Shown in pieces: positions 3,046 through 61,421 of a stretch of 64,000 bases of DNA (the stretch's first letter is position 1; each line of letters starts with the position of its first letter). A program made the translations under genes and the position numbers. This DNA is from Carettochelys insculpta (Eukaryota; Chordata; Testudines; Carettochelyidae), in NCBI RefSeq assembly GCF_033958435.1, contig NC_134147.1, forward strand, positions 46,246,001 to 46,310,000. Reading direction: 5' to 3'. The notes under the pieces were generated by a model, which was not told the DNA's origin, ran no database searches, and was given only the letters and a program-made list of their open reading frames with translations.

Positions 3046-3329
3046 CCGATACCAGTAAGGCCCAACTACGTCAAGAAGAACTCTCAATACTCAAAGAGCC
3101 ACAAGACAGCTGACTCAGCATAAAGCATGAATGTGGACAATATGGGCTTATGGGACAAAAAGAATTTAGCAAAACACCTGCAATGAAATATTAAAATGCT
3201 GATAATAACTAAGACACAACTCTAACATTTCATATTTCCAAAGCGCCTTGCACTCACTAATCCAGTAAGAAGCAAACATCTTTGTTCTATAGGCTGCTAC
3301 AGCAAGGTAAAATCTTCATCTTAATGCCC

Positions 3330-3545: not shown

Positions 3546-4035
3546 ATCGCTTTTCCATCACTAGCTTGGCCAACATCACACACTGAACAGCATTAGAACT
3601 CCTGAGTTTAAATCCACTGCAGCAAGCTCAACATTTGAAATGGAATAGAAAAAATACCTACAATGCCCTTTACTTGCCTCACACTTAAAGAAGGGGTTTG
3701 CAAGAACATTAGTTGCAGCCTTTTCTTCACACACAGACAATAGCAACTCTGTCTATGGTAGCATCTCATTGTGTGTGGAATAGACTGTGATTGCTAAAAC
3801 TGTTCCCAAGCCTCTCACTTTACTTTGCTTCATCCGAAAGGGAAGGAGAAAAAGCTGTGTTAAAGAACCTAAACCCAGGTGATTTACTAGAAAAAACACT
3901 TTATGGCTACCAAGTACAACTGCACAATGCTGGAAGAAGACACTGCCACCCTGCAGGGCTCCATAATGCCCATTGAAATGTAATAGTTCTGCCATGGGTA
4001 ATACAACAAAAGGAAACTTCACTTACTCAGTCTTA

Positions 4036-4326: not shown

Positions 4327-5066
4327 CTAGTGATCCAAAGCATGAAATATCTTGAAATACATCCAAACAAGCTTCAAATACCAAAGTGCGAACAACTAGG
4401 AAAGTCTTAATTGCTGGAGACATAACTTTTGTCATCTAAAAACTCTCATGTGGCAGATACTAACTTTTTCCATTACAGAACATAATCATTAATCTCTGCC
4501 AATGAAAACACAATACAATTTGTTAAATTAACAGTGCTAGTTTTGATTTGGCTTACCATTTCCATTTTATAAAAATAAACATTTCACCTAAACCTAAGAT
4601 GCCAAAAACCCAAAAAAAATGCTGTTATGAAATTCTTGTTTTGCCAATCCAACCCATTCAAAATGAATGAGTCAGACCTCTGAAAATAATGAGGTTGCAT
4701 TGAAAATCATGAAAGTTTTGCAAAAACAAGAACAAGACGCTTCGGGATCTTTCGCTTTGCCTTTGGTTCTTAAGCCCACACTGTCTACCTGGGTCGTGTT
4801 TCCCAATTCTTCTCCACAAATACCCCGTCTAGGAAATTCCTCATTTTAAATTAAATTAAGTTTCCCATGTATTCTTGTGGATCCTGGAACCAGCCATTTG
4901 AGGAAAACAACAAGGATCATGAGACTTGTGATCAAATAATGAGAGCTGAGAACACCAAGTTCATAAAAACATGAGAGTGAAATTCATTGAAAACCGAGGC
5001 CCTGAGCTGGCAAAGAGAACTATATAGATGCTACACAGAGCCCTGCTGACTCCAGTAGACTCCATG
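4327..5066. other. Non-coding DNA
   Basis: Nothing recognisable between a MITE and a Tigger-like element. Confidence 0.55.
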
Positions 5067-6348: not shown

Positions 6349-6784
6349 GGCCATGTCTACACAAGCCCCAAACTTCGAAATGGCCATGCAAATGGCCATT
6401 TCGAAGTTTACTAATGAAGCGCTGAAATGCATATACAGCGCTTCATTAGCATGCGGGCGGCCGCGGCGCTTTGAAATTGATGCGGCTCACGGCCGCGCGG
6501 CTCGTCCAGACGGGGCTCCTTTTCGAAAGGACCCCAGCTACTTCGAAGTCCCCTTATTCCCATCAGCTCATGGGAATAAGGCGACTTCGAAGTAGGTGGG
6601 GTCCTTTCGAAAAGGAGCCCCGTCTGGATGAGCCGCGCGGCCATGAGCCGCGTCAATTTCGAAGCGCCGCAGCCGCCCGCATGCTAATGAAGCGCTGTAT
6701 ATGCATGTCAGCACTTCATTAGTAAACTTCGAAATGGCCATTTGAATGGCCATTTTGAAGTTTGGGGCTAGTGTAGACGTAGCC
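6349..6784. mobile_element. 436-bp fold-back Harbinger-type MITE
   Basis: The ends are GGCCATGTCTACAC and its near inverse, with an ATT duplication at 6346-6348 and 6785-6787. Nearly the whole element is one inverted repeat centred at 6566/6567 on AGCT. The arms carry AACTTCGAAATGGCC, GAAGCGCTGAA and CTCCTTTTCGAAAGGA. It contains no gene, and the open frames across it are products of the palindrome. It has the same length as the copy at 24832. Confidence 0.9.
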
Positions 6785-8648: not shown

Positions 8649-9029
8649 GGCTACATCTACACTAGCCAAAAACTTCCAAATGGCCATGCAAATGGCTATT
8701 TCGAAGTTTACTAATGAAGCGCTGAAATACGGCCGTGGCACTTTGAAATTGATGCGGCTCGCCACCATGCAGTTCGTCCAGACAGGGCTCCTTTTCGAAA
8801 GGACCCCAGCTACTTCGAAGTCCCCTTGTTCCCATCTGCTCATAGAGACTTTGAAGTAGCTGGGGTCCTTTCAAAAAGGAGCCCCGTCTGGACGAGCCAC
8901 ACGGTGGCGAGCCGCGGCTGCCCGCGTGCGAATGAGGCACTGAATATGCATTTCAGCGCTTCATTAGCAAACTTCAAAATGGCCATTTGCATGGCCATTT
9001 CGAAGCTTTGGGCTAGTACAGACGTAGCC
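8649..9029. mobile_element. Degenerate fold-back Harbinger-type MITE
   Basis: It is the same family as 6349-6784, with ends GGCTACATCTACAC and the inverse of GGCTACGTCTGTAC. At 381 bp it has internal losses on both arms. I could not see a clean 3-bp duplication, so it is probably older. Confidence 0.82.
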
Positions 9030-24831: not shown

Positions 24832-25267
24832 GGCCGTGTCTACACGTGCTCCAAACTTCAAAATGGCCATGCAAATGGCCATTTCGAAGTTTACTAATGA
24901 AGCGCTGAAATGCATATTCAGTGCTTCATTAGCATGCGGGCGGCAGCGGCGCTTCGAAATTGACGCGCCTTGCCGCCGCGCAGCGCGTCCAGACGGGGCT
25001 CCTTTTCGAAAGGATGCCGCCTACTTCGAAGTCCCCTTATTCCCATGAGCTCATGGGAATAAGGGGACTTCGAAGTAGGTGGCGTCCTTTCGAAAAGGAG
25101 CCCCGTCTGCACGCGCTGCGCGGCAGCAAGGCGCATCAATTTTGAAGCACCTCGGCAGCCCGCATGCTAATGAAGCGCTGAATATGCATTTCAGCGCTTC
25201 ATTAGTAAACTTCGAAATGGCCATTTGCGTGGCCATTTCGAAGTTTGGGGCACGTGTAGACGTAGCC
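24832..25267. mobile_element. 436-bp fold-back Harbinger-type MITE, best match to the autonomous element
   Basis: An ATG duplication flanks it (24829-24831 and 25268-25270). The reverse complement of the right end, GGCTACGTCTACACGTG, is identical over 17 bp to the left end of the transposon at 51607. The centre is a 60-bp perfect palindrome around CCCATGAGCTCATGGG at 25049/25050. It is CpG-rich with little decay, suggesting recent movement. Confidence 0.93.
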
Positions 25268-48549: not shown

Positions 48550-51235
48550 AGTTGGGAGAGAGTCACAGAAAGGTTTGGATATGGAGAAAGAAATGAATGA
48601 GGTGAGAAACTAATAGAGGCTATGTCTACACTAGCACCCCGCTTACAAAAGGGGGATGCTAATGAGACACTTCTGGGTATGCTAATGAGGCACTGCAATG
48701 AATATGCAGCACCTCATCAGCATAATGATGGCTGCGGCACTTCAAAAGTGACGGTTTCAATCATGTGCAGCTCATCTACATGGGGTGTGCATATTCATTG
48801 CAGTGCCTCATTAGCATATCCCAAAGTGTCTCATTAGTAGCCATAGCCAGAGTGTGCTACAGAGCATGAGATGGTGAGCTGTGACATGGGAGGCCAACAA
48901 AAGGACTGTAGGACGTGGACATGGCAATTGAATGAAGGGAAGTCCAAGAAAATGATAGATTCAATTTTGATAAGAAGATGGATAACATCTGTGCCGAATT
49001 TTCCAAGGAGCATAGACTTGGACCACAGTCTAGTGATCGCAAACATCAAGCTAAAACTCAAAAGAAAGCGTAAGACACAATTCAAGAAAAGAAGAAATGT
49101 GGCAAGGCTAGGCAAGGAAGAAATAGGTAACACACACAGAGCAGCACTTGAAAATTAGGAAAGTGGATACAGAGAATGACCTAGATAAGAAAGTCAAAGG
49201 GATAGCCATGGCGACAGAAGAAGCAATTGAGCAGACTGTTCCGGAAGAAGAGAAGATCAATAAGAAATGGATTACACAGGAGACACTGAAGCTGGTCCAA
49301 GAGAAGAGAGTGCTGAAGATCAGAAGGGATGTTTCAGAGAGGGTGGAACATCAATATAGGGTGAAATGCAATGAGGTAAAAGCAGCTAGAAAAGATAAGG
49401 CAGAATGGTTACAGTAGCAGTGTGAAGATATAGAGAGGTATTACAGTGAATGTAAGACCAGGGAGGTATATAAGATAATTAGGAATATTAATAGGAAGTG
49501 GCAGCCAAAGCAGACAGCAATCAAAGATGAGAATGAAGAGGTGCTCATGAATGAGGAGAAGATTCTGCAGTGATGGGCGAGATACTGCACCAATCTGTAC
49601 AAAGCACAGTTGGACCCAAGTGTCTCAGAGAAACTGATAAAAGAAATGAAACAGATAACTCCACCAAGCATTGAAAGCAAGACCAATATTTTGAAGGAGG
49701 AAGTAGAAAGAGCAATGAAACGACTACATAACAACAAGAGCCCTGGAAATAATAAGATCACGGGAGAGATGATCAAATATGGCACAGAAAGTATAATTCA
49801 GGAAATACACCAACTATGTAATATAGCATGGAAAGAAAGGAAGGCACCTAAAGAATGAACAAGATCTATGCTAGTGACAATACACAAGAAATGAAGTACA
49901 TTGGAATGCAAGAACTACAAAATGACTGCCCTACTTAGTCATCTAGGCCCAGTGCTGCTGACAATACTGATGGAGAGACTAAGATCACAGATAGAAGAAC
50001 ATCTAGAGGACAAGCAAGAAGGGTTCGAGAAAGTAATAAGTACGATACAGCAGACACCAGCACTAAGACTGATAGCAGAGAAAGCTCGACGAAAGAACAA
50101 GAACTTCTACACTTGCTTCATCAACTTTCAAAAGGCATCTGACAGTATAGATCAGAAAGTGACTTGGCCGGTGTTGGAGTCGTATGGAGTGGATAGCAGA
50201 CTGATACAGTTGTTGAAGGATATCCGTGACAATACAGAGACAGCGGTAAGAATGTGCAGGGAGTTGGGAGGTTGGTTTAGAATGAGTAGAGATATGAGAC
50301 AAGGAGACCCAACATCTCCAAGTACCTTCATAATGCATCTACAGACAGCGATGGACAAGATCAAGGAAAAGACAGAACAAATATATGTGCATGGGAAAAG
50401 AATTAACAACTTGAGATTTGCGGATGATATAGTTATCATTGAGGTAGATGAGGAGAAGCTAGCAAAAACACTGCCGGTGTTAAATGAGGAAGGGAAGCAG
50501 TACAGACTGATTATGAACATGGATAAAACAAAAACAATGGTATTTGGAGATAAAATAGGAAGGAAGATCAGCATACATGGGACTGAACTAGAGAACGTAG
50601 AGAAGTTCCCATATCTGGGGAGCAACATGATGTATTACCTAGACTGTAAGAAGGATATAGGAACTAGAATAGCAAAAGCAAGAGCGAGTTTGAAGATGGC
50701 GGATAAGATCTGGAAAAGCAAAGCGATTAGTTTAGGAATGAAGCTGAACGTCTTGAAAACGTATGTATTCAGCAGTATGTTGTATGGATGTGAGACATGG
50801 GTGATCAAATATTTGAAGAGAAGAATATTGACATTCAGGAGGAGTTGTGAAAGAAAGATCCTGAGAATAGGATGGATGCAGAAGATCACCAAAGAGGAAT
50901 TATATAGGAAGATACAGCCAAAAGAGAAACTACTGCAGAAGGTTATACAACAGAAATTACAGCTATTCAGGCATATTTGCAGAATGAATGATGAATGAAA
51001 AATCAAGACCCTGGCATTTGACGGCTTGAACAGGAAAGGCAGACCCCACAGAGAATGGGGAGATGATATAGTAGATTGGTGCAGAGCTGTTCTACAGAAA
51101 CTAAGCCACTCTGCACTGGATAGGGAAAGATCGAAGGAAATTGTGAGAGAGGCATCAGACACAAACAGGTGCTGAGCCCACGGTTGTTGTTGTTCATGAG
51201 GATGATGATGACGATGATGATACACCACTCTGGTA
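48550..51235 (+). pseudogene. Decayed RTE-like LINE (endonuclease + reverse transcriptase), interrupted by a MITE
   Basis: The pieces in order are: the endonuclease C-terminal half (FGYGERNE at 48574, then RTWTW near 48910 and a DHSLV segment near 49021), a basic linker, and reverse transcriptase with RQGDP at about 50297 and FADD at 50417-50428. A C-terminal CETW block near 50790 and a GAT-rich tail near 51197-51222 follow. The family looks RTE-like because of the CETW region and the simple-repeat tail; another clade is possible. It is dead. There are stops at 48598, 49415, 49571, 49856, 49892 and 50996, and the endonuclease and reverse transcriptase parts are in different frames (shift near 49150). 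The start of the LINE is 5' truncated or too degraded to place. The MITE at 48618-48848 is a later insertion. Confidence 0.85.
48618..48848. mobile_element. 231-bp Harbinger-type MITE inside the LINE
   Basis: It begins GGCTATGTCTACAC. The right end reads ATAGCC, weakly matching the inverse. AGA flanks both sides (48615-48617 and 48849-48851). The interior holds inverted copies of GCTAATGAG and GCAATGAATATGCA. Removing the element plus one AGA restores the endonuclease frame (GEKLIECATEHEM), which confirms the boundaries. Confidence 0.85.
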
Positions 51236-51564: not shown

Positions 51565-51606
51565 ACAACAAGAAGTCCTGAGGCACCTTATAGACTAACA
51601 GATATT
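51565..51606. repeat. Fold-back repeat, left piece, split by the Harbinger insertion
   Basis: The sequence from AACAACAAGAAGTCCTG up to AACAGATATT matches one arm of the palindromic repeat at 61698-61850. The missing continuation (GGAGCATAAGCTTTCGTGGG) resumes at 56207. This is the pre-existing sequence into which the transposon inserted. Confidence 0.8.
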
Positions 51607-51765
51607 GGCTACGTCTACACGTGAAGCCAACATCGAAATAGCTTATTTCGATGTTGCGACATAACGTCTACACGTCCTCCAGGGCCGGCAACGTCGATGT
51701 TCAACTTCGACGTTGCTCAGCCCAACATCGAAATAGGCGCAGCGAGGGAACGTCTACACGTCAAA
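51607..51765. promoter_or_regulatory. Left subterminal repeat array of the Harbinger element
   Basis: The 12-mer ACGTCTACACGT occurs three times in direct orientation, at 51611-51622, 51664-51675 and 51750-51761. Between them are inverted and direct copies of AACATCGAAATA or AACGTCGA (about 51629, 51649, 51690 and 51724). The right end has the related TTCGAAGT, TTCGACG and ATTTCGAAAT motifs (about 55980-56180). Such arrays are the expected binding sites for the Myb-like protein and transposase. Binding is inferred. Confidence 0.7.
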
Positions 51766-51941
51766 GTAGCACACATCAAAATAGGGATGCCAGGCACAGG
51801 TGCAGACAGGGTCAACGGGCGGACTAGCGCTTCCGGGGCAACAGCTAGCCGCTCCCTTAAAGGGCCCCTCCCACATACACTCGGCCTGCACAGCACGCGG
51901 TCTGAGGAGCCATAGGCACACAGACCCCGGGCGCCGCAGTC

Positions 51942-51950
51942 ATGGACCCC

Positions 51951-51981
<31 letters not shown>

Positions 51982-53321
51982 TACAGGTCCACCCAGCCCT
52001 CCTGGCAGGAGCAGGGCTTGCCCTGGCCCATGCCATGTGGGAGGCAGCTGACTACCTTCTTGCCCCAGGGGAGGAGATGCCCCCAGGGCAGCAGGGCTCA
52101 ACCCCTACCCCTGCAGCACCCCACTCCACCCCCCGCCTCACACGCCGGCGGCTGTGGAGCTACCCCACCAGCACCGACTGGTGGGAGCGGCTGGTGCTTG
52201 GGGAGTGGAACGACGACCACTGGCTCAGGAACTTCAGGATGACCCGGCAGACATTCCTGGAGCTATGCCAGTGGCTCACCCCCGCACTCAGGCACCGGGA
52301 CACTGCCATGCGGCGTGCCCTCCCTGTGGAGAAACGGGTCGGCATCGCTGTCTGGAAGCTGGCCACTCCGGACAGCTACCGATCCGTGGGGCAGCAGTTT
52401 GGTGTCGGAAAGGCCACCGTCGGGGCTGTCTTCATGGAGGTAAGAGAACCCACAGGGGGAGGCCAGGGCAAGGCAGGGGGGCCAGGGCAGGGCAGGGCAG
52501 GGCAGGGCCACGCACACCCTGCTCACCCCTCATTGGGGCTGTCCCATGTGCTTTCTCTGCAGGTCGTGTGTGCCATCAATGCCATGCTCCTGCACAGGCT
52601 CGTGAGGCTGGGGGACCCACATGCCACTGTCGCCGCCTTTGCCACCCTGGGCTTCCCCAACTGCTTCGGGGCTCTGGACGGGACTCACATCCCCATCCGC
52701 GCCCCGCATCACAGTGGAGGACGATACCTCAATCGGAAGGGCTACCATTCTGTCGTCCTGCAGGCCTTGGTGGACAGCCGGGGACGTTTCCAGGACATTT
52801 ACGTGGGCTGGCCTGGCAGCACCCACGACGCCCGGGTTTTTCGGAACTCGGGCCTGTGCCGCCGGCTGGAGGCGGGGACCCACATCCCCCAGCGGGAGAT
52901 CCCTCTGGGGGACACCACCATGCCCTTCTGCGTCATCGCAGATGCGGCCTACCCCCTCCGGCCATGGCTCATGCACCCCTACACGGGCCATCTCTCCGCT
53001 AGCCAGGAGCGCTTCAACGAGCGCCTGAACCATGCGCGCCAGGTGGTGGAGCGCTCATTTGGCCGCCTCAAGGGACGCTGGAGATGTCTCCTGACCCGCC
53101 TGGATGCGGGCCCCAACAACATCCCCCAGATTGTGGGTGCCTGCTGCGCCCTGCACAACCTCGTGGAGAGCAAGGGGGAGACCTTTCTGCAGGGCTGGGC
53201 CGCGGAGGCCGGCAGGGCACACGTGCAGCCACCTGCTGCCCCCAGTCGGCAGGTGGACCCAGAGGGGACCCGGGTCCGGGAGGCCCTGCGGGCCCACTTC
53301 AACCAACAGGCCGCGGGGTGA
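51942..53321 (+). CDS. Harbinger DDE transposase (DDE_Tnp_4 / HARBI1-like)
   Basis: This is the nuclease that would excise and insert the element. The open frame is 459 codons, or 418 residues if the intron at 52440-52562 is removed. In order, the unspliced protein shows a polyglutamine stretch (residues 4-13), a basic patch near residue 65, a helix-turn-helix-like segment near 144-165 and then the RNase H-like catalytic core. Catalytic residues are D246 in DGTHI, D334 in ADAAYPL and E370 in VERSFG (D205, D293 and E329 after splicing). Exactly 35 residues lie between the second D and the E, the D35E spacing of PIF/Harbinger enzymes. The conserved WPGSTHDARVF block is also present. The chosen ATG is the first in frame and precedes the CAG run. 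No frameshift or stop is seen. The gene converges on the Myb-like gene. Family assignment is firm; activity is inferred. Confidence 0.93.
51950..51979 (+). repeat. CAG microsatellite encoding polyglutamine
   Basis: Nine CAG codons and one CAA follow the third codon of the transposase, giving ten glutamines. A pure CAG run is prone to length change, so the N-terminus could vary between copies without breaking the frame. Confidence 0.9.
52440..52562 (+). other. Short phase-0 intron in the transposase gene
   Basis: The donor reads GAG|GTAAGA and the acceptor reads TTTCTCTGCAG|GTCGTG. The length is 123 nt, a multiple of three, with no in-frame stop, so retained and spliced transcripts both stay open. 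Splicing joins the segment ending in GAVFMEV to VCAINAML, giving a continuous Harbinger-like helix between the helix-turn-helix and the catalytic core. The intron peptide is low-complexity Gly/Ala/His and is unlikely to belong to the enzyme. The intron contains tandem GGGCA units (about 52487-52508). Confidence 0.8.
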
Positions 53322-53500
53322 ACTCTGCCCAGGCCCCCTACTGCCCGCCCCTTCCTCCCCCACACTCCTGCCCCAACGCCCACACCATGGAGCACCCCAC
53401 CGCCCCCCCCTCCCACTTGTCCTGGACAAATGACAGCACGAACTTGTGGGTGAACGTAAACTTTTTTTTCGTCTTTACGAAACTCTTTTTTTTTTTTGTA

Positions 53501-53510
53501 AATAAATAAA
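53501..53510 (+). terminator. Polyadenylation signals after the transposase gene
   Basis: Two overlapping AATAAA hexamers lie about 180 bp after the transposase stop, next to long T runs. A third AATAAA is at 53570-53575. I found no equally clear hexamer on the minus strand for the converging gene, so the two transcripts may overlap at their 3' ends. Confidence 0.6.
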
Positions 53511-53745
53511 TATGTGAAACACAAACCAAAAAGGAGGGACAAACGTTCAACCAAAGCAAGATGTGCACAAATAAAACAATACAACAACAAAGCAAAGAAG
53601 TGTGCGCCATCAACAAAAAAGAAAAGCAGGGAGGAGAACAGGGAGAACTATTTACATGAGGGGGACGGGGCAAACGGGGGCACCAAAAACAAACAGTCAA
53701 ACTATATACAACAAGGGGGGGGGCCACGTCCCGGGCCCCTCGCCC

Positions 53746-55840
53746 CTAGAGCCCAGCACTGGGCGTGCCCGGCCGGGAGCCCCGCCGTACCGGCAGTCTG
53801 GTCCGCGGCTGGGTGGGAGCGGGCTGCACAGGAAGGTATTGGTGCCGGCGAGTCTCAGTTGGCTCCAGGGGTCCCTCGGCGCTGTGGCCCTCGCGGGTGG
53901 GTGGTGGGGCGACGGCTGGAGCAGCTGGTGATGGGGCTGCAGGAGCGGGCAGGGCAGGCGATGGCTCGGCCGGCGTGGCATGGGGGGCCAGGTAATCAAC
54001 CAGCCGGTTAAATGTCTGCATATAGGCCCCCCATGCCTCCTGGCGCCAGGCCAGCGCCCGCTCCTGCAGCTGGAGGTGCTGCTCCGAGACCTCCAGCTGC
54101 CGGCGGAGGATGGCCAGCAGCTGGGGGTCCGTCGCCGCCGGCGGTAGTAGGCGCGGGGTCCACCGTCTTGCCCTCTGCGGGGCCGGTCGTTCCTCGGCCG
54201 AGGGGCTGCCCTGGAGCGAGGGTCCCGGAGGGCTCTCCGGGACGACTGAGGCCTCGCCGGCGCTCTCTTCCAGTCCTTCGGATGGTGCGGGTGCAGATGC
54301 AGGACACAGGAGAGGAGGGGGGAAAGAAGAATGGAGACAGGCGTTAGTGTGGGCCCCAAGCCGTGGCCTTTGTCTCCCCCGCCCTGTGCTGCAGGTTCCC
54401 CATCCCAGTCCCCGGGAGATGCTGCTGTGATGGATGGGGTTCAGGGGTCCCCCTGCCCTGCACCCCGTCCCCTGGTGGGAGCGACTCTCACTTCACCCCG
54501 CAGGGTCTGAGAGCAGGAGAGCTTTCTTAGGCCACAGATGGCCAGTTTCTGGCAGGAGTGACAGCACCAGCTGTCAGAAGAGACAGTCCTTCCAACCCAT
54601 CGTGGGGAGAAGACCCCAAGGGGGGCCCCTCTGGGATGCAGCTTTCCCCCTCCTCTGGCTGGCTGCCTACCAGCTCTCCCTTCCCCTAGCCTCTACCTGT
54701 GGCCCCCGCCCTCGCCCCCCAATTCCAAGCCAGCTCGGCTCCTCCCTCCTGTTTGTTCAGGGCAGAGGTGTCACCTGCCAGCTGTAGCGCCAGGATCCTC
54801 CTTTGGCCCTGGGAGCTCCTCGGCTCTTGTGGCTCATATGTAGCCTGAGTCTCCCTTTGGCACTCCCCCTACTCCATCACATGCTGCTGCTGCGGGGTGT
54901 CCCACCCCCTCCGCCCGGGGGCCCCTCGAGGTTCCGCTCCCCCCTGGCCCGGGGATGGGGCATGGCACTGTCATGCAGGGTGGGGGGGGGCAGGGGCTGA
55001 CGGCTGCAGTGCTGTGAGGGCCATGGCCCTGGTGTCCTTGGGGCCATGGCCATGTGAGCGTGTGGGGGGCCCTGGACACATCTCTGTTACCCCCGCCCCT
55101 CAAGCCCAGGGGTGTCCACCAGAGAGGGGTACCTACCTGTGGGTCCGCTCCCATGGTCCGGAGATCCCCGGGGGTCGGAGGCCCTGCTGCTGCTCCGGGA
55201 TGGCAGGAGGAGGATCTGCAGGCTGGATTCTGCGGAGGAGGAGCCCCCCTCCTCCTCCTCCTGCCGCGATGTCCCGGGGATGGCCTCCGGGGGGGGGGCT
55301 CGCCTCCGGGGCGGACTCCGGCTGCAGGGCCTGCTGGGGCTCGTCAGCCGAGGTGTCAAGGGTGGCCGGAGGGGAGGAGGTGTGCCGGGAGCCCAGGATG
55401 TCCCTGAGCTCCCTGTAAAAGGGGCAAGTGACGGGGGCGGCCCCAGATCGGCTGGCCGCATCCCGGGCCCGGGCATAACCCTGCCGCAGCTCCTTCACCT
55501 TACTCCGGACATGGTCCGGAGTGCGGGCAGGGTGACCCCGGGCAGCCAGGCCGTCGGCCAGCCGAGCGAACACATCCGCGTTCCGCCTCTTGCTCCCCAT
55601 TACCTGGAGCACCTCCTCCTCGCTCCAGAGCCCCAGCAGGTCCCGCAGCTCGGCCTCCGTCCAGGAGGGGCCCCGCTGCCGCTTCCCAGACTGGCAGGTC
55701 TTCTGGCTGGGCTGGCTGCCCTGGCTCCCCTTGGGGGGGGGTCCCCTGGGGAGCTGGGGGGGCTCCTGGCTCGCCATCACCGCTGTGTGGTGGGCTGAGG
55801 GCTGTGCAGGCTGCCCGCGTGTGCAGGCTGCAGCCTGCAT
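53746..55840 (-). CDS. Harbinger accessory Myb/SANT-like (trihelix) DNA-binding protein, two exons
   Basis: This is the second protein of the transposon. In studied Harbinger systems a Myb-like partner binds the ends and helps the transposase enter the nucleus. Exon 1 is 55840-55137. After a basic KRQR patch it carries a Myb/SANT-like domain at about residues 57-150, starting at GPSWTEAELRDLL and ending at FYRELRDILG. The donor CACAG|GTAGGT at 55137/55136 matches consensus well. Exon 2 reads in another frame down to the TAG at 53746-53748. It contains a Leu/Gln-rich coiled-coil-like stretch (LLAILRRQLEVSEQHLQLQE, near 54120-54061) and a Pro/Ala-rich tail. A phase-compatible acceptor would end at 54263, giving about 406 residues. 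That acceptor lies about 45 nt after the pyrimidine tract and is uncertain. The start could be 55840 or the internal ATG at 55777, which has the stronger context (GTGATGG). Confidence 0.82.
54263..55136 (-). other. Predicted intron of the Myb-like gene
   Basis: The donor is strong (CAG|GTAGGT). A pyrimidine-rich tract lies at about 54306-54330 on the minus strand. The first AG after it ends at 54276, but that AG would put exon 2 out of frame. The AG ending at 54263 restores the coiled-coil frame. The interval is GC-rich, and its open frames look like composition artefacts. Confidence 0.55.
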
Positions 55841-56203
55841 GTTGCCTCAGCTTCCTGCAGAGTCAGGGCGGGGGAGGGGACCTTTAAGGGGCCGCTCCAC
55901 GCAGCCACCAGTGAGCTGAGGGGCTGGAGAGAGCGTCTCTCAACCCCCCAGCTGATGGCCGCCATGGAGGACCCGGCAATTTCGACGTTGCGGGACGCGG
56001 ATCGTCTACGCTGTCCCTACTTCGACGTTCAACGTCGAAGTAGGGCGCTATTCCTATCTCCTCATGGGGTTAGTGACTTCGACGTCTCGCCGCCTAACGT
56101 CGAAGTTAACTTCGAAATAGCGCCCGACGCATGTAGCCGCGACGGGCGCTATTTCGAAATTAGTGCCGCTACTTCGAAGTAGCGTGCACGTGTAGACACA
56201 GCT

Positions 56204-56246
56204 ATTGTGGAGCATAAGCTTTCGTGGGCAAAGACCCACTTCGTCA
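56204..56246. repeat. Fold-back repeat, right piece after the Harbinger insertion
   Basis: It starts with the duplicated ATT and continues GTGGAGCATAAGC through ACCCACTTCGTC. It completes the arm begun at 51565. Confidence 0.8.
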
Positions 56247-61012: not shown

Positions 61013-61421
61013 GGCCATGTCTACACTAGCCCAAAACTTCAAAATGGCCATTCAAATGGCCATTTCGAAGTTTACTAATGAAGCGCTGAAATACATATTC
61101 AGCGCCTCATTAGCATGCGGGCGGCCGCGGCACTTCGAAATTGACGCGGCTCGCCCCCGTGCGGCTCGTCCAGACGGGGCTCCTCTTCAAAATGACCCCG
61201 CCTACTTCGAAGTCCCCTTATTCCCATCTGCTCATAGGAATAAGGGGACTTAGAAGTAGGCGGGGTCCTTTCAAAAAGGAGCCCCGTCTGGACGAGCCGC
61301 ATCAATTTCAAAGTGCTGTGGCTGCCCGCATGCTAATGAGGTGCTGAATATGTATTTCAGCGCTTCATTAGTAAACTTCGAAATGGCCATTTTGAAGTTT
61401 TTGGCTAGTGTAGACATAGCC
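61013..61421. mobile_element. 409-bp fold-back Harbinger-type MITE
   Basis: An ACA duplication flanks it (61010-61012 and 61422-61424). The ends are GGCCATGTCTACAC and the inverse of GGCTATGTCTACAC. It has the same interior as the 436-bp copies, with a deletion in the right arm near 61300. It lies 16 bp after a hAT-like element. Confidence 0.88.

What the first reader, a model, noticed from the sequence alone, without database searches (positions are those of the whole stretch)
51607..56203. A structurally intact two-gene Harbinger transposon in a vertebrate genome
Terminal repeats, a 3-bp duplication, an unbroken transposase with all three catalytic acidic residues and D35E spacing, and an unbroken Myb-like partner are all present. 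Most vertebrate Harbinger copies are defective, so an intact copy suggests recent or present activity. Combined with MITEs sharing its ends, the window may hold a working transposition system.
Basis: partly seen in the sequence, partly recalled or inferred. Interest (0 to 1): 0.88.

Follow-up and report, generated by a model that had tools for sequence, protein, structure and literature searches.

The report
Turtle transposon that traps host genes
A 4.6-kb two-gene jumping element in the pig-nosed turtle genome has complete ends and a readable cutting-enzyme gene but a frameshifted partner gene, so it probably no longer moves by itself, while related copies lie in the same orientation just behind an exon of two host genes, where they would likely splice their enzyme part onto the host protein.

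Summary
The element is real. Its borders (51607-56203) coincide with both ends of 37 of 39 other copies fetched from the same 2.18-Gb genome, which contig lengths identify as Carettochelys insculpta. The transposase is intact, but its 459-aa ORF contains a 123-bp intron that happens to stay open; spliced, it is 418 aa with D, D35E. The Myb-like partner is not intact: a 14-bp deletion private to this copy shifts its frame. Recent activity is not supported: the nearest of 16 aligned full-length copies is 2.7% away and this copy's own branch is 1.7%. Two things are more interesting. The family does not use the PIF/Harbinger TWA target (1 of 32 TSDs); it prefers a palindrome, ACWY-NNN-RWGT, and so does a MITE family. 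And the transposase's second exon, behind its own splice acceptor, is joined to host sequence in 8 of 153 listed relatives, all at the exon start; two of the seven genes, GLCCI1 and ANKRD13C, were read in DNA, and both have a sense-oriented copy just downstream of a host splice donor. No RNA was seen.

The parts
51607..56203 (.). whole transposon, 4597 bp
   Evidence: both ends coincide with the ends of 37 of 39 other copies fetched; TSD ATT
51604..51606 (.). left target-site duplication ATT
56204..56206 (.). right target-site duplication ATT
51607..51623 (+). left terminal inverted repeat GGCTACGTCTACACGTG
   Evidence: exact in 26 of 38 copies, one or two changes in the rest
56187..56203 (-). 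right terminal inverted repeat AGCTGTGTCTACACGTG (read on minus)
   Evidence: exact in 29 of 38 copies, one or two changes in the rest
51629..51732 (.). left subterminal array of small palindromes with motif AACDTCGAA (4 copies); candidate Myb-like protein binding sites (inferred)
55981..56116 (.). right subterminal array of motif AACDTCGAA (5 copies)
51942..52439 (+). transposase exon 1 (166 codons)
   Evidence: relatives continue without insert
52440..52562 (+). phase-0 intron, GTAAGA...CTGCAG, in frame by chance in this copy (predicted, no RNA seen)
   Evidence: no insert in 153 relatives, 9 of which do not span the point; length not a multiple of 3 in 15 of 17 copies
52563..53321 (+). transposase exon 2: whole DDE_Tnp_4 match with D205, D293, E329, to the stop codon
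53501..53506 (+). AATAAA signal downstream of the transposase stop (a second one at 53570)
55137..55777 (-). Myb-like gene exon 1, with intact SANT domain
   Evidence: Myb_DNA-bind_4 E=2.3e-13; exon limits
55288..55297 (-). site of a 14-bp deletion private to this copy; shifts the Myb-like reading frame
   Evidence: 35 bases here, 48-49 in 15 of 16 other copies, a larger loss (16 bases left) in L018
54276..55136 (-). Myb-like gene intron (861 bp, phase 1)
53746..54275 (-). Myb-like gene exon 2 (open, but out of register with exon 1 because of the deletion)
6349..6784 (.). palindromic MITE, TSD ATT
8649..9029 (.). palindromic MITE, no matching TSD
24832..25267 (.). palindromic MITE, TSD ATG; query that listed 39 other genomic copies at 95-96% identity
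36582..36880 (.). palindromic MITE, AAT against AAC (imperfect TSD)
61013..61421 (.). palindromic MITE, TSD ACA

Best explanation
This is one copy of an abundant two-gene transposon family of the PHIS (Harbinger-like) superfamily in the pig-nosed turtle, with complete ends and an open transposase but a frameshifted Myb-like gene, so it likely cannot move by itself and at most could be moved by other copies. Inferred mechanism: the Myb-like protein would bind the AACDTCGAA palindromes at both ends and recruit the DDE transposase, which would cut at the ends and join them across an 11-bp palindromic target, ACWY-NNN-RWGT, duplicating the middle three bases. The target preference and the duplication are shown; the protein roles are carried over from zebrafish Harbinger3_DR. 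The same kind of machinery would have moved the palindromic MITEs. The sampled copies point to a past burst: they differ by 2.6-4.7%. A side effect follows from the gene structure: transposase exon 2 holds the whole DDE domain match behind a canonical phase-0 splice acceptor and ahead of an AATAAA signal, so a sense insertion in a host intron would act as a natural gene trap that replaces the end of the host protein by a DDE domain. The layout is shown in DNA for two genes; that the fused mRNA and protein exist is predicted from public gene models only.
For: Borders, ends and 3-bp TSD: 32 of 38 copies. Target palindrome: 28 of 32 sites score at least 6 of 8 half-site positions against 3.6% of background; position +3 is G in 27 of 32 (consensus read from the same sites). 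MITE copies, an independent set: TSD in 25 of 30; of these 25 targets 21 score at least 6 and 21 exceed the background 95th percentile with the element-derived matrix. Motif AACDTCGAA: 20 hits in the window, 9 in the element's ends and 11 in the five MITEs, none elsewhere; 0.38 expected (pattern chosen after seeing the ends). Intron. Myb deletion. Divergence. Fusion: 8 of 153 listed relatives (7 genes) have unrelated sequence upstream and join at the exon-2 start; in seven of the 8 the alignment begins at exon-2 residue 1, in ANKRD13C at residue 2 after an A that the DNA shows to be its first codon. Host domains by Pfam in five of the seven genes: FAM117 (GLCCI1), ankyrin/ANKRD13_C, tectonic, butyrophilin-type PRY and V-set, patatin. 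GLCCI1 (L048): host exon ending at 3210 with donor CAG|GTAAGC, full-length sense copy from 3378, TSD TCA, acceptor TTTCTCTGCAG|GTCGTG, AATAAA about 180 bp after the stop. ANKRD13C (L049): host exon ending at 3999 with donor GAG|GTGAGC, sense copy from 4397 (88% identical), acceptor intact.
Against: No RNA or protein evidence was reachable; the fusions could be gene-prediction artefacts. The predicted structure of exon 2 is of low confidence (pLDDT 64) and matched no solved structure at E<=0.001, so a self-contained fold is not shown. Two of the seven fusion models carry only a partial DDE match (HLF, PNPLA4), two have no Pfam host domain (HLF, LOC142023941), and exon 2 in HLF, PNPLA4 and the butyrophilin is only 58-77% identical to this copy's, so those come from other lineages. 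A ninth odd model, P0164, does not use the exon-2 start. The ANKRD13C copy has no perfect TSD (TAT/CAT). The MITEs share no interior with the element, so another transposase with the same specificity could be their partner. Only 40 of 3396 candidate copies were scored, the best by likeness to this one, so a younger subfamily elsewhere is not excluded. 6 of 38 copies and 5 of 30 MITEs lack a perfect TSD.
Confidence: 0.72

Rival explanations
1. One reading: a complete, recently or currently active two-gene Harbinger that drives itself and the MITEs.
For: Complete ends and open transposase; only 2 of 252 exon-2 residues private to this copy against 6-22 in seven relatives; 11 of 17 copies keep the transposase open.
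Against: Private 14-bp deletion frameshifts the Myb-like gene; nearest full-length copy 2.7% away, this copy's branch 1.7%; singleton substitutions in the transposase have N/S 1.72 against 2.20 expected without selection, close to neutral.
Confidence: 0.07
2. The MITEs were amplified by a different Harbinger-like family of the same genome that has the same target specificity, not by this one.
For: No internal homology between MITEs and element; other transposase lineages exist in this turtle, 52-65% identical (P0009, P0055, P0104, P0120).
Against: Shared ends, shared terminal motif and the same palindromic target; the target of the other lineages was not examined.
Confidence: 0.35
3. The host-transposase fusion models are artefacts of automatic annotation that chained a transposon ORF to a neighbouring host gene.
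For: They are public gene models and no reads were seen; the element carries a canonical acceptor that a predictor could also pick.
Against: The 8 joined models use the natural exon-2 start in frame, and both loci read in DNA have a canonical host donor and a sense copy 0.2-0.4 kb downstream. These facts show that the splice is possible, not that it happens.
Confidence: 0.4
4. The copy is a domesticated host gene kept by selection.
For: Open transposase with conserved triad.
Against: Transposon ends and TSD remain, many other copies with the same ends, near-neutral substitution pattern across copies.
Confidence: 0.02

Closest known systems
PIF/Harbinger group sensu Han et al. 2015 (PMC4482050; passages, sections 6 and 7)
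   Same: DDE transposase alignable to the same Pfam family, D35E, second gene with Myb/SANT domain, 3-bp duplication
   Different: Its stated TSD is TWA; here 1 of 32. Target is an 11-bp palindrome ACWY-NNN-RWGT
Pangu and NuwaI groups (same paper)
   Same: PHIS superfamily; Pangu ends usually begin AG or GG, as both ends do here; NuwaI has a Myb/SANT second gene
   Different: Pangu TSD ANT (8 of 32 here) and no known motif in its second ORF; NuwaI TSD CWG (1 of 32 here)
Zebrafish Harbinger3_DR (Sinzelle et al. 2008; seen only as cited in passages of PMC9710019)
   Same: Transposase plus Myb-like protein; the Myb-like protein interacts with the transposase and recognises a 9-bp subterminal motif
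   Different: Its motif was not compared; here the motif's binding is inferred
Harbinger-Snek of sea kraits (PMC8437027; passages, section 13)
   Same: Reptile Harbinger expansion with short non-autonomous copies and insertions in genes
   Different: Horizontally acquired within 15-25 My according to the passage; no terminal-exon trap in the parts read
Host-transposase fusions by transposase capture (Cosby et al. 2021; seen only as a reference entry, otherwise recalled)
   Same: Host exons spliced to a transposase exon
   Different: As recalled, the classic cases capture a DNA-binding domain; here the catalytic exon would be added, at the end of the host protein
L1 and Tigger elements as intronic gene traps held back by SAFB (PMC10901741; passages)
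   Same: Intronic element offering splice acceptor plus polyA signal
   Different: The passages call those elements intronless, single-exon genes; here the acceptor is that of the element's own intron, ahead of the catalytic exon

Membership tests
PHIS superfamily (Harbinger-like) | transposase alignable over the catalytic region (DDE_Tnp_4) | tested here: met
   E=8.4e-42, profile 1-158 of 158
PHIS superfamily (Harbinger-like) | D, D35E triad | tested here: met
   D205, D293, E329, 35 residues between the last two
PIF/Harbinger group | second gene with Myb/SANT domain | tested here: met
   Myb_DNA-bind_4 E=2.3e-13; frameshifted in this copy, open in 4 of 17 copies
PIF/Harbinger group | TSD 5'-TWA-3' | tested here: not met
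   1 of 32 perfect TSDs; MITEs 1 of 25
PIF/Harbinger group | terminal inverted repeats | tested here: met
   17 bp with 14 matching, constant in the family
Pangu group | TSD 5'-ANT-3' | tested here: not met
   8 of 32
Pangu group | no known motif in second ORF | tested here: not met
   Myb/SANT domain present
NuwaI group | TSD 5'-CWG-3' | tested here: not met
   1 of 32
NuwaII group | TSD TNA inside C|TNA|G | tested here: not met
   2 of 32 TNA
autonomous active element | both genes open in the same copy | tested here: not met
   Myb-like gene frameshifted by a private 14-bp deletion
autonomous active element | near-identical copies or polymorphic insertion | tested here: inconclusive
   best other match 98% over 601 bp among 40 scored of 3396 candidates; polymorphism not testable
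host-transposase fusion | host exon joined in frame to transposase exon at a splice site | tested here: inconclusive
   gene models 8 of 153 and DNA layout at 2 of 7 loci; no transcript seen

The most novel reading that the evidence does not exclude
The family and its close kin are a natural, in-frame nuclease-adding gene trap of a new target-site group: because the transposase gene is split by a phase-0 intron so that the second exon carries the whole catalytic domain and a polyA signal, their burst gave the pig-nosed turtle alternative isoforms in which host proteins such as GLCCI1, ANKRD13C and tectonic-3 end in a DDE nuclease domain, and element and MITEs together define a further PHIS group with an 11-bp palindromic target ACWY-NNN-RWGT.
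Probability: 0.35. Interest if true: 0.75.

Novelty: new variant of a known kind. Interest (0 to 1): 0.55.

Why it matters
A vertebrate Harbinger-like family with a non-TWA, palindromic target shared with MITEs would extend the known range of target choice in this superfamily. Its split transposase gene suggests step by step how a DNA transposon could hand a ready-made catalytic exon to several host genes, so the birth of host-transposase fusions can be looked at in a living genome for which RNA-seq has been produced. It also shows that 'intact by eye' can mislead: one open frame was an intron read-through, the other an out-of-register tail.

Tried and rejected
Structure route: AlphaFold2 of exon 2 gave pLDDT 64 and no significant PDB match; PDB sequence searches found nothing at E<=1; not used as support. 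BLAST of the element against the window gave no sign that the MITEs are deletion derivatives. Pangu was considered because ATT fits ANT and the ends begin GG and AG; rejected after 32 sites. A one-base slip in the poly-C run was considered and rejected: it is a 14-bp deletion. Of seven ORFs of at least 130 aa outside the element, one has a Pfam domain above cut-off, a reverse transcriptase; host exons in the window were not otherwise sought and the host gene, if any, was not identified.

Limits: protein searches listed the best 120 of 433 hits, all 38 hits, and the best 120 of 501 hits; the 153 transposase relatives are the union listed. In one search exons were cut by alignment columns, so counts of open genes depend on the alignment; one of the two copies with both genes open has a GC splice donor in the Myb-like gene. 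Of 39 other copies, 2 (L009, L025) lacked an end and were dropped before the TSD count; gene-intactness, distances and tree used the window and the 16 copies that matched end to end, not the 19. Of 39 other MITE copies listed, 30 were read for flanks; nine were not requested, most of them because a match stopped short of an end. The target consensus was read from the same 32 sites on which it was scored; the MITE set is independent. No dating in years was computed.
Full report
What is there. The window lies at G000:C11:46246001-46310000 of a 2,179,932,312-base genome. Contig lengths of that genome (for example 383128740, 282189452, 212173194) are those under which close relatives of the two proteins are listed as Carettochelys insculpta, so the host is the pig-nosed turtle. 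The nine best transposase relatives are all from that species. Its published assembly has 310 Mb of DNA elements, 14.23% of the genome (PMC10960847, passages).

Ends and target. The element runs from 51607 to 56203. In 37 of 39 other copies fetched both ends are present. Counting this copy, the left end GGCTACGTCTACACGTG is exact in 26 of 38 and the right end AGCTGTGTCTACACGTG in 29 of 38, the rest differing by one or two bases, so the three mismatches between the ends are a family feature. Around this copy the duplication is ATT, and three other copies of the interrupted host repeat in the window, 85-91% identical, show the uninterrupted site. Over the 38 copies, 32 have a perfect 3-bp duplication; 1 of 32 is TWA. 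The flanks form a palindrome: -4 A 22/32, -3 C 24/32, -1 C 20/32, +1 G 18/32, +2 T 19/32, +3 G 27/32; 28 of 32 sites reach 6 of 8 half-site matches to ACWY...RWGT, against 3.6% of random flank sites. This copy's own site scores 6. The consensus was read from the same 32 sites, so the MITE test below is the independent one.

MITEs. Five palindromic MITEs of 299-436 bp lie in the window; three have a perfect TSD. They share no interior with the element at E<=1e-3 but share ends (15 hits in the window to GGCYRYGTCTACAC with up to 1 mismatch, 0.00 expected; 9 of the 10 MITE ends, both element ends and four single ends) and the motif AACDTCGAA, which occurs 20 times in the window, 9 times in the element's two ends, 11 times in the MITEs and nowhere else, with 0.38 expected by chance (motif chosen after inspection). 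For the MITE at 24832-25267 the genome search listed 39 other copies at 95-96% identity; 40 of 4654 candidates were scored. Of 30 whose flanks were read, 25 have a perfect 3-bp duplication (1 TWA); of these 25 targets, 21 reach the half-site score of 6 (background 3.5%), and 21 exceed the background 95th percentile under the matrix made from the element's sites. Element and MITEs thus used the same unusual target, which makes a common machinery likely.

Genes. The transposase ORF of 459 aa (51942-53321) is an intron read-through. No insert shows at that point in 153 aligned relatives, of which 9 do not span it; the intron has canonical ends, and in 15 of 17 full-length copies its length is not a multiple of three. 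Spliced, the protein has 418 aa, with D205, D293 and E329. It is open in 11 of 17 copies, this one included. The Myb-like gene (55777-53746, minus strand) has two exons; its SANT domain is intact, but at 55288-55297 this copy has lost 14 bases. The stretch compared has 35 bases here, 48-49 in 15 of the 16 other aligned copies and 16 in L018, which has a larger loss of its own. Everything after it is out of register. Myb-like genes are open in 4 of 17 copies and both genes in 2 of 17.

Age. The 17 full-length copies differ by 2.6-4.7% (mean 3.8%); the nearest to this one is 2.7% away. The tree is star-like with terminal branches of 1.5-3.1%, 1.7% for this copy. Singleton substitutions in the transposase have N/S 1.72 against 2.20 expected without selection, and shared ones 1.53: near neutrality after insertion. 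This fits a past burst. The sample was chosen for likeness to this copy (40 of 3396 candidates scored, best other match 98% over 601 bp), so a younger branch is not excluded.

Gene trap. In 8 of the 153 listed transposase relatives the sequence before exon 2 is not transposase, and these 8 join at the exon-2 start: GLCCI1, ANKRD13C, tectonic-3 (two isoforms), LOC142023941, HLF and PNPLA4 of the pig-nosed turtle and a butyrophilin of Pelodiscus. In ANKRD13C the alignment begins one residue in; the DNA shows that its exon 2 begins with an alanine codon. A ninth odd model (P0164) starts inside exon 2 after an out-of-frame stretch and is not counted. Exon 2 is 83-96% identical to this copy's in GLCCI1, ANKRD13C, tectonic-3 and LOC142023941, but 77% in HLF and 58-59% in PNPLA4 and the butyrophilin, so the trait reaches beyond this family. 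Pfam finds host domains next to DDE_Tnp_4 in five of the seven genes; none passes in HLF and LOC142023941, and the DDE match is partial in HLF and PNPLA4. At GLCCI1 the DNA shows a host exon ending at 3210 with donor CAG|GTAAGC, a full-length sense copy from 3378 with TSD TCA, its acceptor, its exon 2 and an AATAAA about 180 bp past the stop (L048). At ANKRD13C the host exon ends at 3999 with donor GAG|GTGAGC and a sense copy, 88% identical and with TAT/CAT in place of a perfect duplication, begins at 4397 with its acceptor intact (L049). The other five genes were not read in DNA. That these joints occur in RNA is a prediction.

Comparison. In the scheme of Han et al. 2015, where TSD composition defines groups, TWA marks PIF/Harbinger, ANT Pangu and CWG NuwaI (PMC4482050, passages and sections 6-7). 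This family fits none, though its two-gene anatomy is that of PIF/Harbinger; it is best filed as PHIS superfamily, Myb type, group unassigned. Broader usage would still call it Harbinger-like: 3-bp duplications are general there (PMC9179366, passages). The role of the Myb-like protein is taken from zebrafish Harbinger3_DR as summarised in PMC9710019 (passages). Intronic elements acting as gene traps through acceptor plus polyA signal are known for L1 and Tigger (PMC10901741, passages). I saw no report of this target or of these turtle fusions in the listings of the searches, which cover open-licence papers only; apart from the papers named here the listed papers were not opened.

Noticed in passing
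window 49901-50998 (+): 365-aa ORF with a reverse transcriptase domain (RVT_1, E=2.6e-22), a LINE-like fragment ending about 0.6 kb before the transposon.
   Followed up: no
window 7383, 20234, 33733, 48618: Four single ends matching GGCYRYGTCTACAC (0-1 mismatch) with no partner end among the matches; possibly truncated or more diverged relatives.
   Followed up: no
protein P0187 (Carettochelys AIRE model): The annotated autoimmune regulator begins with part of the transposase (end of exon 1 and about half of exon 2) before its HSR domain; could be an annotation artefact or a real alternative start.
   Followed up: partly
protein P0027 (Emydura macquarii): A KRAB box followed by a Harbinger-like transposase in one gene model, resembling (as recalled) the classic host-transposase fusion layout.
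   Followed up: no
window 52440-52562 and the same intron in L010-L028: The transposase intron differs in length between copies (113-166 bp by alignment columns); it holds a short G-rich repeat.
   Followed up: partly
window 53301-53800: Two AATAAA signals lie on the plus strand; no AATAAA or ATTAAA was found on the minus strand there for the convergent Myb-like gene.
   Followed up: no
Myb-like relatives P0126, P0135, P0141, P0143: Several other annotated Myb-like proteins appear to leave register in the same low-complexity stretch after the SANT domain (alignment, read by eye), so this stretch may be prone to frameshifts.
   Followed up: no
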